DNA of 45,808 nucleotides from an uncultured Eubacterium sp. (GTDB lineage: Bacteria; Bacillota; Clostridia; Lachnospirales; Lachnospiraceae): positions 1 through 45,808 of the forward strand of contig CAMEWO010000016.1 in assembly GCA_945946665.1 (NCBI GenBank), written 5' to 3'. This document shows positions 4,344 to 9,814 of the stretch, in pieces (position 1 is the first letter of the stretch; the number at the start of each line of letters is the position of its first letter). The position numbers and the translations under genes were made by a program. Under the pieces are notes generated by a model. The model was given only the letters and a program-made list of their open reading frames with translations. It was not told the DNA's origin and made no database searches.

Positions 4344-4390
4344 ACTTTATATATAATTGACTCTTTGTAACTTGCACTTGCGTTCGCATA

Positions 4391-4425
4391 AAAATAAGCC
4401 CCAGAAATTCAGCATTTCCGGAGCC
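4391..4425 (-). terminator. Degenerate terminator homologous to the gdhA terminator
   Basis: An imperfect hairpin with stem core GAAAT/ATTTC flanked by GC/CC pairs, followed on the minus strand by CTTATTTTT. It lies downstream of the PBECR4 gene. Sequence and layout match the gdhA terminator at 5964-6000, so it appears to be a diverged copy of it. Confidence 0.6.
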
Positions 4426-4466
4426 TGCCCTTATTAATTATTCACTTAAAATATGCTATTTATCCG

Positions 4467-4515
4467 TTAATCAAAAATTAGCATACATCCAGAGCTAACA
4501 TAGTAGCTTCTAAGG
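4467..4515 (-). pseudogene. Remnant of a gdhA 3' end
   Basis: Read on the minus strand this piece encodes ATMLALDVC followed by a stop and then GATTAACGG. The end of the intact gdhA encodes NAMLAQGVC, a stop and then GATTAACAG. About 31 of 41 aligned bases agree without gaps, and each copy is followed by the same kind of terminator hairpin. Similarity fades upstream of this tail. It is therefore best read as a leftover of a duplicated or recombined gdhA 3' end. Together with the intact copy at about 6050-6095 it brackets the antitoxin/RNA/PBECR4 module. Confidence 0.6.
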
Positions 4516-4605
4516 TGTCCGCAGATTTGCCGGAGTTTTGAGGGCGTTTGTATATCACGTGTATAGAATGATTGTCGGAGAATTTCGGTTATTATCAAAT
4601 TTAAA

Positions 4606-5253
4606 TCATACTTCAAAAATATCTGATTCATTTTCTTTTTTCTGTTCAACAGAATAATTAGGATGTTGATATATCGTAATTCTATTCCCAGAAACAATCT
4701 TATCTTTTAACATCCAATACAAATTCTGCCCTCCATATGCAGTATTTTTCTTAACTCCAAATGAAACAATACAACAGGGAGACTGCAATCCCTTCCTATG
4801 CTTTAAGAAAATATACACAATTTTACTAGAATGTTTTAATTTGCTTTCAATTATGTAATCACATCGAATCATGGAATTATTTTGAGGGCCGTCTTTGGGT
4901 GAATATATTCGAATAAAATTATCTACATCCAAATATTGTTCTATATGTCTAAATTCAGAAATACGTTCCTCGATATCCTTCTCATCATTATCTTTGCCCT
5001 TATAATGTTCACTGCCAGCCAAATACGCATCCGTAATAGGATGTTTTTCTGAAAGAATCCAATCAATCGTTTTCTTCTTATTTTTCGGAATATTTATATC
5101 ATCTAAATATTGTAATCCAACCAAATGATGAAAATCTTTCAAATCAAAATCCAGGGTCAAAACTTTCACACCACGTTTCGCAACATGAAATACATATTTA
5201 GTTGTAGAAACCAAGTGAAGAAAATTTTGTGCACATTGTTGAATTTTATCCAT
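4606..5253 (-). CDS. PBECR4-type nuclease-fold protein
   Basis: A soluble protein of about 216 residues without signal peptide or membrane segments. The central FHHLVGLQYLDDI motif and the later YIIESK, VYIFLK and CCIVSFGVK strands, plus a GQNLYWMLKDKI tail, match what I recall of the PBECR4 family (phage-Barnase-EndoU-ColicinE5/D-RelE-like nuclease 4); this is recognition from memory. Members are proposed RNA-cleaving toxins or effectors of mobile elements. The ATG at 5253 is chosen because GGGG lies 7 bases upstream. Longer in-frame starts would run into the terminator hairpin at 5279-5306. The gene follows a promoter-RNA-terminator unit and an orphan Phd/YefM gene. No catalytic residues have been verified, so nuclease activity is an inference. 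Confidence 0.65.
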   Translation of the reverse strand: MDKIQQCAQNFLHLVSTTKYVFHVAKRGVKVLTLDFDLKDFHHLVGLQYLDDINIPKNKKKTIDWILSEKHPITDAYLAGSEHYKGKDNDEKDIEERISEFRHIEQYLDVDNFIRIYSPKDGPQNNSMIRCDYIIESKLKHSSKIVYIFLKHRKGLQSPCCIVSFGVKKNTAYGGQNLYWMLKDKIVSGNRITIYQHPNYSVEQKKENESDIFEV

Positions 5254-5278
5254 ACGTATCCCCATTACATCCATATAG

Positions 5279-5306
5279 TAAAAAGCCTTGCAAAACTGCA
5301 AGGCTT
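5279..5306 (-). terminator. Intrinsic terminator between the structured RNA and the PBECR4 gene
   Basis: A perfect 10-bp stem AAGCCTTGCA/TGCAAGGCTT with a four-base loop, followed on the minus strand by TTTTT. It ends the RNA transcribed from 5460 and lies about 26 bases before the PBECR4 start, so expression of that gene would need read-through. Confidence 0.85.
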
Positions 5307-5460
5307 AATAATCAAATATACAACTTTCTTTCACTTTCGCTAGATGGATTATGGTAAGTTGCCACCTTTGTGAGCCTCCATGTTCACCGCTTTCCATCAC
5401 GGCTCGCACTTCACAGACGAAAACATTTTTACGAGTCTGCTTCTCGAGAAGTTACCTTCT
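5280..5460 (-). ncRNA. Candidate structured small RNA upstream of the PBECR4 gene
   Basis: A free-standing transcription unit of about 180 nt: near-consensus promoter (5467-5495), start near 5460, structured body 5353-5456 and a strong terminator. The body can fold into a junction. P1 pairs GGTAA (5456-5452) with TTACC (5357-5353). P2 is the self-complementary CTTCTCGAGAAG (5451-5440). P3 pairs CAGAC (5439-5435) with GTCTG (5418-5414) and extends with AAAA/TTTT. P4 pairs GTG-C-GAGCC (5409-5401) with GGCTCAC (5376-5370). No plausible reading frame with a ribosome site occupies it. Parts recall T-box leaders, but the terminator arm does not contain a T-box, so I do not call it one. Its position just upstream of a toxin-like gene resembles type III toxin-antitoxin layouts; this is inference. 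Confidence 0.6.
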
Positions 5461-5466
5461 AATAGT

Positions 5467-5495
5467 ATATTATACACTTCTATTAAAATTGTCAA
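5467..5495 (-). promoter_or_regulatory. Near-consensus sigma-A promoter of the structured RNA
   Basis: On the minus strand TTGACA (5495-5490), 17 bases, TAATAT (5472-5467). Transcription would start near 5460, directly before the first paired segment of the RNA. The alternative TATAAT at 5474-5469 has a 15-base spacer. Confidence 0.8.
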
Positions 5496-5542
5496 TCTGG
5501 AATTTTTTTCAAGCCACCCACAACAAACTATTTCATCATAGG

Positions 5543-5791
5543 CTATACCTCGACAGATTTCTTCAGTTCATACAAACTCATCCAAGCACTTTCATCCCTA
5601 ACTGCCTCTTCTGCTTCCTGTAGTTTCATGAGTAGCTTCTTTTCGGCTTTTTCACGCTCATAGTCCTCAATAACCATAACCACAAACTTGCCCCTACCAT
5701 TTTGGGTCAAAAACACAGGTTCTCCAACCTGACAATTTTTCAGTACTTCATTATAATTTCGTAAATCTGATACAGGTAATATATTCGGCAT
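5543..5791 (-). CDS. Orphan type II antitoxin, Phd/YefM family
   Basis: An 82-residue protein beginning MPNILPVSDLRNYNEVL, the typical N-terminal DNA-binding segment of Phd/YefM antitoxins. It continues with GEPVFLTQNGRGKFVVM, the conserved core strand, and ends in a charged C-terminal tail that normally wraps the toxin. The ATG at 5791 fits the family start; an in-frame ATG at 5827 would add 12 residues, and neither has a strong ribosome site. The expected RelE/ParE/Doc toxin gene is absent on both sides. The next downstream feature is the structured RNA and then the PBECR4 protein. It may be a leftover of a degraded toxin pair, or may act with the neighbouring module. Confidence 0.85.
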   Translation of the reverse strand: MPNILPVSDLRNYNEVLKNCQVGEPVFLTQNGRGKFVVMVIEDYEREKAEKKLLMKLQEAEEAVRDESAWMSLYELKKSVEV

Positions 5792-5846
5792 AAAATCAAC
5801 TTTCTTTCCTTGATATAGTTTCTTCATTTATATATATTGTACGCAA

Positions 5847-5888
5847 GAAAGCTGTAAAACTCAACGTGTAATTTTACAGCTTTCTTTA
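5847..5888. promoter_or_regulatory. Perfect 15-bp inverted repeat upstream of the antitoxin gene
   Basis: AAGAAAGCTGTAAAA (5847-5861) and its exact complement (5874-5888) flank a 12-base loop. On the + strand it is followed by TAATATACC rather than a clean T-run, and on the minus strand by no T-run. It sits about 55 bases before the Phd/YefM start. Either an operator for the antitoxin or a weak bidirectional terminator is possible. Confidence 0.5.
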
Positions 5889-5963
5889 ATATACCTTCTA
5901 TTTATGAATAATCTGACAATTCATGTTCATTATCAAATGATGAATTGGTCTTCATCAACATAT

Positions 5964-6000
5964 AAAGAAAAGCCCCGGAAATTCAACATTTCCAGGACTT
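5964..6000 (-). terminator. gdhA intrinsic terminator
   Basis: On the minus strand CCTGGAAAT, a five-base loop, ATTTCCGGGG and then CTTTTCTTT, about 50 bases after the gdhA stop codon. A diverged copy lies at 4391-4425. Confidence 0.8.
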
Positions 6001-6051
6001 CTCCATATTATCTTTATCTTAGATTTCTATTAATTAGCTGTTAATCGCAGA

Positions 6052-7404
<1,353 letters not shown>

Positions 7405-9226: not shown

Positions 9227-9295
9227 CCCCAGGTATGTATTAGAAAGATTTTTTATTTTTATAATGAGTTGTTTAAGAAGAAACCACGTAAACTT

Positions 9296-9790
9296 GCGAT
9301 TTGGAGTATAAACAGCCTACACTATGGCGGCCCTGGCTGCACACTCAAACAAAAAAGTCACATTAGAAGAAATCTTAGCGCTGCGGCGTGTATGGATTAC
9401 ACTTCGCAAGCAACAGACTACACTATGGCGGCTTGGGTTGCACACTCAAACAAAAAAGTCACATTAGAAGAAATCTTAGCGCTGTGGCGTGTATGGATTA
9501 CACTTCGCCAACAACTGCACGAATGTCTGAGCCCCGGTCAGGGGCGAGTTGTCGGGCAGTTGTTGAAATAAGCGAGTGTAATTCATATACGCCACAACGC
9601 TTAGATTCTCTTCGTAGTGACTTTTTTTGTTTGAGTGTGCAACCCAAGCCACCATAGTGTAGGCTGTTGCTTTAATAAGCGAGTGTAATTCATATACGTC
9701 ACAACGCTTAGATTCTCTTCGTAGTGACTTTTTTTGTTTGAGCGTGCAGTCAGGACCACTATAGTGTAGGCTGTTTATACGCCAAATCGC
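9296..9790. repeat. Giant nested palindrome, copy 1
   Basis: The 588-base gap between convergent genes is nearly all one imperfect palindrome. The outer ends match (GCGATTTGGAGTATAAACAG versus the complement of CTGTTTATACGCCAAATCGC). Each arm holds two tandem ~100-base units with the common core CTATGGCGGC, CACTCAAACAAAAAAGTCAC, and an AATCTTAGCGCTG to GATTACACTTCG stretch; the right arm holds the same units inverted and diverged. The centre is a smaller hairpin, AACAACTGC (9510-9518) with GCAGTTGTT (9556-9564), enclosing GAGCCCC...GGGGCGAGTT. Short reading frames in the arms are by-products of the repeat. Function is unknown; a MITE-like or structured-RNA origin is possible. Confidence 0.9.
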
Positions 9791-9814
9791 CACACTCCAC
9801 GTCTTTCTTATATT

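What the first reader, a model, noticed from the sequence alone, without database searches (positions are those of the whole stretch)
4391..5888. Promoter-structured RNA-terminator unit next to a PBECR4-type toxin-like gene and an orphan antitoxin
A near-consensus promoter drives a ~180-nt RNA that can fold into a closed multi-helix junction and ends at a strong terminator about 26 bases before a nuclease-fold gene. This is the layout of type III toxin-antitoxin loci, where an RNA neutralises the toxin and limits read-through sets toxin dose. I know of no described RNA partner for PBECR4 proteins. The Phd/YefM gene beside it has no cognate toxin, so a mixed protein/RNA control module is also possible. 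The toxin assignment and any RNA-protein contact are inference.
Basis: partly seen in the sequence, partly recalled or inferred. Interest (0 to 1): 0.78.

Follow-up and report, generated by a model that had tools for sequence, protein, structure and literature searches.

The report
Drum RNA paired with PBECR4 toxin-like gene
A small folded RNA of unknown role, known to databases as "drum", often sits just in front of one family of toxin-like genes, so the pair probably works as an RNA-controlled bacterial toxin switch, which gives this orphan RNA a testable job.

Summary
The layout is real, all on the minus strand: promoter-like site (5495-5467), ~180-nt RNA, terminator (5306-5283), PBECR4 gene (5253-4606). 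The RNA matches the orphan Rfam family drum (RF02958) just under the curated score (42.8 vs 43 bits). With that independent model, 30 of 48 drum copies in two genome samples lie directly before PBECR4; it also precedes PBECR4 on Enterococcus and Streptococcus plasmids, in Treponema and on a viral contig. Most PBECR4 genes without drum carry other RNAs in the same place, including tandem repeats not in Rfam. Covariation supports pseudoknots in drum and in the repeats, as in type III antitoxins. In a tree of 55 intact PBECR4 proteins RNA type follows protein clade (6 changes; shuffled mean 29). RNA without toxin is common; intact toxin without RNA is rare (L118, and the distant L174). Best reading: type III-like toxin-antitoxin modules whose protein shows no sequence match to the ToxN-type families. 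Toxicity, nuclease activity and RNA binding are untested, and no solved structure matched. The Phd/YefM gene is not part of the unit. I found no paper making this link; the paper that described drum was not available to me.

The parts
5467..5495 (-). sigma-70-type promoter-like site of the RNA (TTGACA-17-TAATAT)
   Evidence: consensus scan; inside the block shared with L022
5420..5463 (-). 5' part of the RNA, upstream of the Rfam drum model; expected 5' end near 5460
   Evidence: 43 of 44 bases shared with L022; in many other drum loci this stretch can form a GACAG..CUGUC-like hairpin, seen by eye
5316..5419 (-). drum RNA (RF02958), whole model 1-112
   Evidence: 42.8 bits, gathering 43, E 3.1e-6; alignment
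5393..5398 (-). P2-loop strand of a long-range pseudoknot helix (GAUGGA), pairs with 5348-5343 (UCCAUC)
   Evidence: coordinates; helix 3: 94.2% of cells paired, all 6 pairs with double changes
5343..5348 (-). partner strand of the long-range pseudoknot helix
5356..5361 (-). loop strand of the H-type pseudoknot (CAACUU), pairs with 5326-5321 (AAGUUG) after the A-rich GAAAGAAA
   Evidence: coordinates; helix 5: 74.6% of cells paired, 6 of 7 pairs with double changes
5321..5326 (-). partner strand of the H-type pseudoknot
5283..5306 (-). intrinsic terminator between RNA and gene
4606..5253 (-). PBECR4-domain protein (215 aa), predicted toxin
   Evidence: PF18813 E 4.2e-13; dN/dS 0.087 against L022

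Best explanation
The unit is a type III-like toxin-antitoxin module. One promoter makes an abundant pseudoknotted RNA (drum) that mostly stops at the terminator; a minority of transcripts read through and give a little PBECR4 protein. The RNA is proposed to bind PBECR4 and keep it inactive; loss of the RNA supply (plasmid or locus loss, transcription shut-off by a phage) would free the protein, which is then proposed to cut RNA and stop growth. Shown by computation: the layout, the covarying helices, the drum-PBECR4 association, its match with protein clades, and movement as one block. Inferred: the transcript itself, read-through, toxicity, nuclease activity, direct RNA-protein binding, neutralisation and the trigger.
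For: (1) With Rfam's own model 26 drum copies were found in 22 of 250 genomes of the family, 19 of the 26 followed by a PBECR4 match within 150 nt on the same strand; a class-wide sample of 391 genomes gave 22 further copies, 11 followed by PBECR4. 20 of 22 drum genomes hold PBECR4, against 24 of 228 without drum. (2) Same order in 4 of 4 plasmid loci scanned (5 fetched, 21 matching records), in Treponema L120 and L121 and on viral contig L127. (3) Most PBECR4 genes without drum have other RNAs in the same place; of 55 intact PBECR4 genes 48 have a terminator-like hairpin in the 190 nt upstream of the match, against 8 of 39 window ORFs of 150 codons or more (this control includes the PBECR4 ORF itself), Fisher 6e-11. 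(4) Covariation: drum 86.2% of cells paired, 67.7% shuffled, 37-43% slid; repeat class 93.2%, shuffled 82.6%, slid 23-50%. (5) RNA class follows protein clade: 6 changes, shuffled mean 29.0, 0 of 200 as low. (6) Window and L022 share promoter to gene end (5507-4620, 88.9%) with unrelated flanks. (7) RNA is kept where the toxin is cut or gone. (8) dN/dS 0.087, while the RNA differs at 6 of 148 sites.
Against: No toxicity, binding or transcript data. The window's drum is 0.2 bits under the gathering score. Drum is a single unit here, not tandem repeats as in classical type III. The hairpin stem of drum's H-type pseudoknot is conserved but shows no double changes (helix 4), so only its crossing helix is backed by covariation. 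13 of 48 drum copies have no PBECR4 trace and are not at contig ends; of the 14 repeat-class RNAs not used to train the model 8 stand alone, so these RNAs can exist without the gene. L118 is an intact-looking PBECR4 whose RNA is displaced (by eye). Ligilactobacillus plasmid PBECR4 L174 follows a protein gene by 4 nt, with no RNA seen. 7 of 55 intact genes gave no terminator by my detector and 4 of 55 have no recognised RNA class. No PDB structure matches either model. The threonine of the last strands, kept in most drum-type proteins, is W in the window protein.
Confidence: 0.77

Rival explanations
1. Drum is a cis-acting leader: a riboswitch- or attenuator-like element whose pseudoknots control read-through into PBECR4, without neutralising the protein.
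For: RNA and terminator lie directly upstream of the gene on the same strand; AbiF in C. difficile was described with an upstream RNA and a possible 'riboswitch-like' control (PMC12373285, passages).
Against: Drum and repeat-class RNAs persist where the gene is deleted or absent. One protein family has several different RNA types that follow its clades. Both points fit a protein partner better than a ligand sensor.
Confidence: 0.1
2. Drum is an independent regulatory sRNA that happens to be mobilised beside PBECR4.
For: Rfam lists drum as sRNA; solitary copies exist, among them five alike in one genus (L072, L074-L077).
Against: Adjacency in 30 of 48 copies, also in Treponema and on plasmids; shared block from promoter to gene end.
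Confidence: 0.05
3. A mixed control module in which Phd/YefM is the protein antitoxin of PBECR4.
For: Phd/YefM gene 5543-5827 lies upstream on the same strand.
Against: Found in no held locus outside the window's own genome; near-copy L022 and gdhA-linked L102 lack it.
Confidence: 0.02
4. The RNA is a working subunit: an RNA-PBECR4 particle that senses phage and becomes active, a defence effector rather than an addiction pair.
For: Plasmid copy beside AbiH (L131); phage phi1605 carries an RNA-PBECR4 unit (by eye).
Against: No PADLOC family match; no phage data.
Confidence: 0.06

Closest known systems
Type III toxin-antitoxin systems (ToxIN, CptIN, TenpIN)
   Same: One promoter, pseudoknotted RNA, intrinsic terminator, toxin gene; class B pseudoknots have a one-base loop 1 and an A-rich loop 2, as the review says of CptI (PMC5086642, passages).
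   Different: The protein matches PBECR4 and no other toxin family in Pfam up to E 10 (8 proteins), with no PDB sequence match worth the name; drum is single-unit; no Rfam match to the class B RNAs.
Rfam RF02958 drum RNA
   Same: Window RNA matches the whole model; drum has a measured k-turn (PMC8191799, passages).
   Different: The passages seen give drum no function. Rfam's consensus already holds three of the crossing pairs; the P2-loop helix, the crossing hairpin stem and the PBECR4 link are from this work. The 2017 discovery paper (recalled) was not held, so its text was not checked.
AbiF with its upstream abiF RNA (RF03085)
   Same: Upstream structured RNA with terminator before an abortive-infection gene (PMC12373285, passages).
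   Different: Different protein and RNA families.
PBECR domains of polyvalent phage proteins
   Same: The domain clade from which the Pfam name comes, predicted BECR-fold RNases (PMC5512222, 12 passages).
   Different: There mostly parts of large phage proteins, also solo; no RNA partner in the passages seen.

Membership tests
Type III toxin-antitoxin system | single promoter upstream of the RNA | tested here: met
   consensus site 5495-5467; prediction only, no transcript data
Type III toxin-antitoxin system | intrinsic terminator between RNA and toxin gene | tested here: met
   5306-5283; 48 of 55 intact PBECR4 genes vs 8 of 39 control ORFs
Type III toxin-antitoxin system | antitoxin RNA made of repeats | tested here: not met
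   drum in the window is one unit; class B RNAs of other PBECR4 genes have two units, class D two by eye
Type III toxin-antitoxin system | RNA folds as H-type pseudoknot | tested here: met
   crossing helices covary; drum's hairpin stem is conserved without double changes; structure inferred, not solved
[quoted passage not shown]
   PF18813 is the only toxin family found
[quoted passage not shown]
   needs experiment
Rfam RF02958 drum | score at or above gathering threshold | tested here: inconclusive
   42.8 vs 43 bits; sister copies L022 44.4 and L102 43
Rfam RF02958 drum | conserved helices and pairing | tested here: met
   window keeps both crossing helices, 6 bp each (coordinates); some P1 and P2 positions are unpaired
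PBECR4 (PF18813) | profile match over curated cut-off | tested here: met
   50.5 vs 27 bits
PBECR4 (PF18813) | active-site His in a helix and a C-terminal S/T | tested here: inconclusive
   H43 invariant in 23 of 23 aligned; the T of the last strands is W in the window; other conserved Ser remain
BECR nuclease fold | structural match to a solved BECR protein | tested here: inconclusive
   models pTM 0.72 and 0.87; no PDB hit under E 0.001

The most novel reading that the evidence does not exclude
PBECR4 proteins and at least four families of pseudoknotted RNAs (drum, a tandem-repeat family with ring-closing pairing, and two smaller types judged by eye) form a new superfamily of RNA-protein conflict modules in which the RNA can be exchanged while the protein family stays. 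The RNA may be a sensor subunit, and solitary RNAs scattered in genomes may immunise cells against incoming PBECR4 modules.
Probability: 0.3. Interest if true: 0.92.

Novelty: new variant of a known kind. Interest (0 to 1): 0.82.

Why it matters
It gives a concrete, testable function to drum, an orphan structured RNA with a studied k-turn but no role in the passages I saw, and gives PBECR4 proteins a partner. If true, type III-like RNA control extends beyond the ToxN/CptN/TenpN proteins to another toxin family, with new RNA families, one of them a two-unit pseudoknot ring.

Tried and rejected
Single-sequence folding does not support the RNA (z -1.17): it cannot see pseudoknots. Rfam at the gathering threshold found nothing in the window; only the permissive search showed drum. 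A search of viral contigs with the window protein found no relative; phage records gave none for the drum-type protein L027 nor the class D protein L100, and two for the class B protein L028. Structure comparison: no PDB match for either model; two unnamed viral proteins in BFVD at TM 0.60-0.67, not followed. A phylum-wide PBECR4 search found 3 of 299 genomes, two of them already known. Looking for an empty site in the genus (21 genomes with the gdhA region, 8 read) gave none that is clean: seven have other DNA beyond gdhA, and L165 keeps pieces of both flanks about 4 kb apart with other DNA between. My first terminator detector was strict (38 of 55 intact, 3 of 39 controls); the relaxed one gave 48 of 55 and 8 of 39. 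The repeat-class model R1 was trained on RNAs next to PBECR4, so its 15 of 25 adjacency in 250 genomes is not independent; of the 14 copies not used in training 4 are adjacent, 2 carry PBECR4 remnants and 8 stand alone. In the shuffle control of class B one measure did not exceed chance (further pair types, 229 of 500 shuffles as high).

Rows left out: of 84 distinct PBECR4 places I examined 79; five were left out of the counts (G125:C5, G111:C3, G205:C32, G086:C15, all beside drum, and G265:C39 with two internal stops, not fetched). My rule for 'intact' may call some divergent complete genes damaged (L143, for instance). Three identical rows were dropped from the drum alignment (66 to 63). 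Of 18 two-unit class B loci, L092 was left out as a near copy of L091, and L092 and L133 are not in A9. The named loci L109 and L116 lie on contigs of the same lengths as contigs of the samples (G060, G149), so they are not independent of them.

Full report
What is there. On the minus strand of the window run a promoter-like site (5495-5467), an RNA of about 180 nt, a terminator-like hairpin (5306-5283) and an ORF of 215 codons (5253-4606). The ORF matches Pfam PBECR4 at 50.5 bits (cut-off 27). The RNA matches the whole of Rfam family RF02958, drum, at 42.8 bits against a gathering score of 43, E 3.1e-6. It is the only drum match in this genome at E 0.001. Alone, the sequence folds no better than shuffled copies, so the case for structure rests on relatives.

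Association. I searched 250 genomes of the family with RF02958 and with PF18813. Drum was in 22 genomes, 26 copies; PBECR4 in 44 genomes. Twenty of the 22 drum genomes hold PBECR4, against 24 of the 228 without drum. In 19 of the 26 copies a PBECR4 match lies within 150 nt downstream on the same strand. A class-wide sample of 391 genomes gave 22 further copies, 11 followed by PBECR4. In all, 30 of 48. Of the other 18, three carry a PBECR4 remnant (L009 and L066 by tblastn; L067 by eye), two end at a contig edge (L006, L078) and 13 show no trace. Beyond these samples, the print shows the RNA upstream in 16 of 19 loci from genome contigs, by eye (in L126 the gene is cut; two loci are Treponema); the exceptions are L118 (RNA displaced), L123 (RNA lost, gene cut) and L124 (contig begins inside the gene). 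The permissive Rfam search, run on 11 loci, confirmed drum in L117, L120, L121, L122, L125, viral contig L127 and the plasmid loci L128-L131, and not in L123. Two of the four plasmids scanned are E. faecalis, one E. faecium, one S. suis.

Other RNAs in the same place. Most PBECR4 genes without drum are not without RNA. Upstream of them lie a promoter-like site, another RNA and usually a terminator. I sorted these as A' (a shorter drum-like form; L096 and L097 reach 34 bits with RF02958), B (two tandem units of 50-65 nt), C and D. No Rfam family matches the class B loci at E up to 1. Each B unit has the form GUUG-G-[4 nt]-CAAC-A-rich linker, and the four loop bases pair with four bases after the linker: an H-type pseudoknot. 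In 17 of 17 two-unit RNAs tested (18 found, one near copy left out) the unit-1 loop pairs fully with the strand that starts unit 2 (permuted mean 5.5), the unit-2 loop with the strand that starts unit 1 (13.5), and the 3' end with the 5' hairpin loop (12.4); none of 2000 permutations reached 17 in any of the three tests. In alignment A9 of 16, 93.2% of cells pair against 82.6% shuffled and 23-50% slid. The RNA thus looks closed into a ring. Pseudoknots for C and D are by eye only.

Drum structure. On an alignment of 63 drum RNAs the structure with pseudoknots has 86.2% of cells paired (67.7% shuffled, 37-43% slid), covariation 0.574 against 0.233. The P2 loop pairs with a strand downstream (94.2% paired, all six pairs with double changes), and a hairpin loop pairs with the strand just after the A-rich GAAAGAAAA (74.6% paired, six of seven pairs with double changes). 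The short hairpin stem that this crosses is conserved but shows no double change. The window keeps both crossing helices, six pairs each. Rfam's consensus has three of the crossing pairs. Papers: one passage each in CaCoFold, Rfam 14 and CaCoFold-R3D mentions drum; a k-turn study measured its folding (passages); none of these passages gives a function.

Co-evolution. A tree of the 55 intact PBECR4 proteins puts A (21 rows), B (17), C (2) and D (5) each on one side of a branch, with supports 99/96, 99/87, 95/93 and 100/99; all labels together need 6 changes, the least possible being 5, against a shuffled mean of 29.0. A' needs two changes and four rows stay unclassified. Some genomes hold units of two classes (G086, G131, G171, G214, G299, damaged units included), so host ancestry alone does not explain it.

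Asymmetry. Of 79 PBECR4 places examined (84 found) 55 are intact by my rule. Of these, 51 have a recognised RNA class, 47 automatically and four by eye, and the other four (L052, L101, L104, L139) a terminator-like hairpin. Copies in which I saw no RNA (L056, L088, L144, L149) are cut short. RNA with a cut or absent toxin is common. Outside this set L118 looks intact without its RNA, and in Ligilactobacillus plasmid L174 an intact PBECR4 follows a helix-turn-helix-like coiled-coil protein by 4 nt with no RNA seen; distant PBECR4 genes may have other partners. L175, from a Streptococcus phage, was not assessed for RNA.

A unit that moves. The window unit and L022, from another genus, share a block from 5507 to 4620 (promoter to gene end) at 88.9%, with unrelated flanks. 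Within it the drum part is 94% and the RNA 5' part 98% identical, the gene 87%. The protein is under purifying selection (pS 0.40, pN 0.047, ratio 0.087). L102 has a relative of the unit beside the same gdhA gene, without Phd/YefM. A 72% direct repeat of the gdhA 3' end flanks the region.

Protein. AlphaFold models: window pLDDT 72.6, pTM 0.72; Hungatella homologue L116 93.4, pTM 0.87. Foldseek finds no PDB match under E 0.001 for either; weak hits include HigB2 and YoeB/ParE and a PfiAT toxin-antitoxin complex, which I do not count as evidence. The nuclease assignment rests on the Pfam profile and on the paper that defined PBECR domains (PMC5512222, passages). H43 is invariant in 23 of 23 aligned proteins.

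Interpretation. The review of type III systems (PMC5086642, passages) describes one promoter, an RNA of repeats, an intrinsic terminator and an endoribonuclease toxin, with H-type pseudoknot antitoxins; CptI has a one-base loop 1 and an A-rich loop 2, as class B does. The window unit shares layout and pseudoknot but not the repeats or the toxin family. I therefore say that it works like a type III system and do not file it as a member. Function is inferred; the deciding experiment is toxicity with and without the RNA. Searches for PBECR4, RF02958, drum RNA, BECR and type III systems with related terms were read as listings, with the passages named above; none of what I saw states this link. 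The library holds only open-licence papers.

Noticed in passing
window 4388-4503 and 5962-6077: Direct repeat (117 columns, 72%) of the gdhA 3' end and its terminator flanks the Phd-drum-PBECR4 region; genus relative L165 also has a second copy of that terminator stretch.
   Followed up: partly
L072, L074-L077: Five closely alike solitary drum copies with a strong terminator and no PBECR4, four of them in one genome: a spreading RNA-only element?
   Followed up: no
L174:1242-2274: Ligilactobacillus plasmid PBECR4 preceded by a helix-turn-helix-like coiled-coil protein and no RNA that I could see; possible protein antitoxin.
   Followed up: partly
L173:1480-2412: Erysipelothrix phage phi1605 carries, by eye, a class-B-like RNA with terminator before a PBECR4 frame that its annotation covers only in part.
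   Followed up: partly
L131:2341-4492: Drum-PBECR4 unit beside an AbiH gene on E. faecalis plasmid pKUB3006-2.
   Followed up: no
L189: Class B RNA followed by what looks like an extra pseudoknot unit, beside an N-terminally cut PBECR4.
   Followed up: no
window 9269-9793: Overlapping ORFs with repeated segments (LHYGGLGCTLKQKSHIRRNLSA), probably a repeat and not genes.
   Followed up: no
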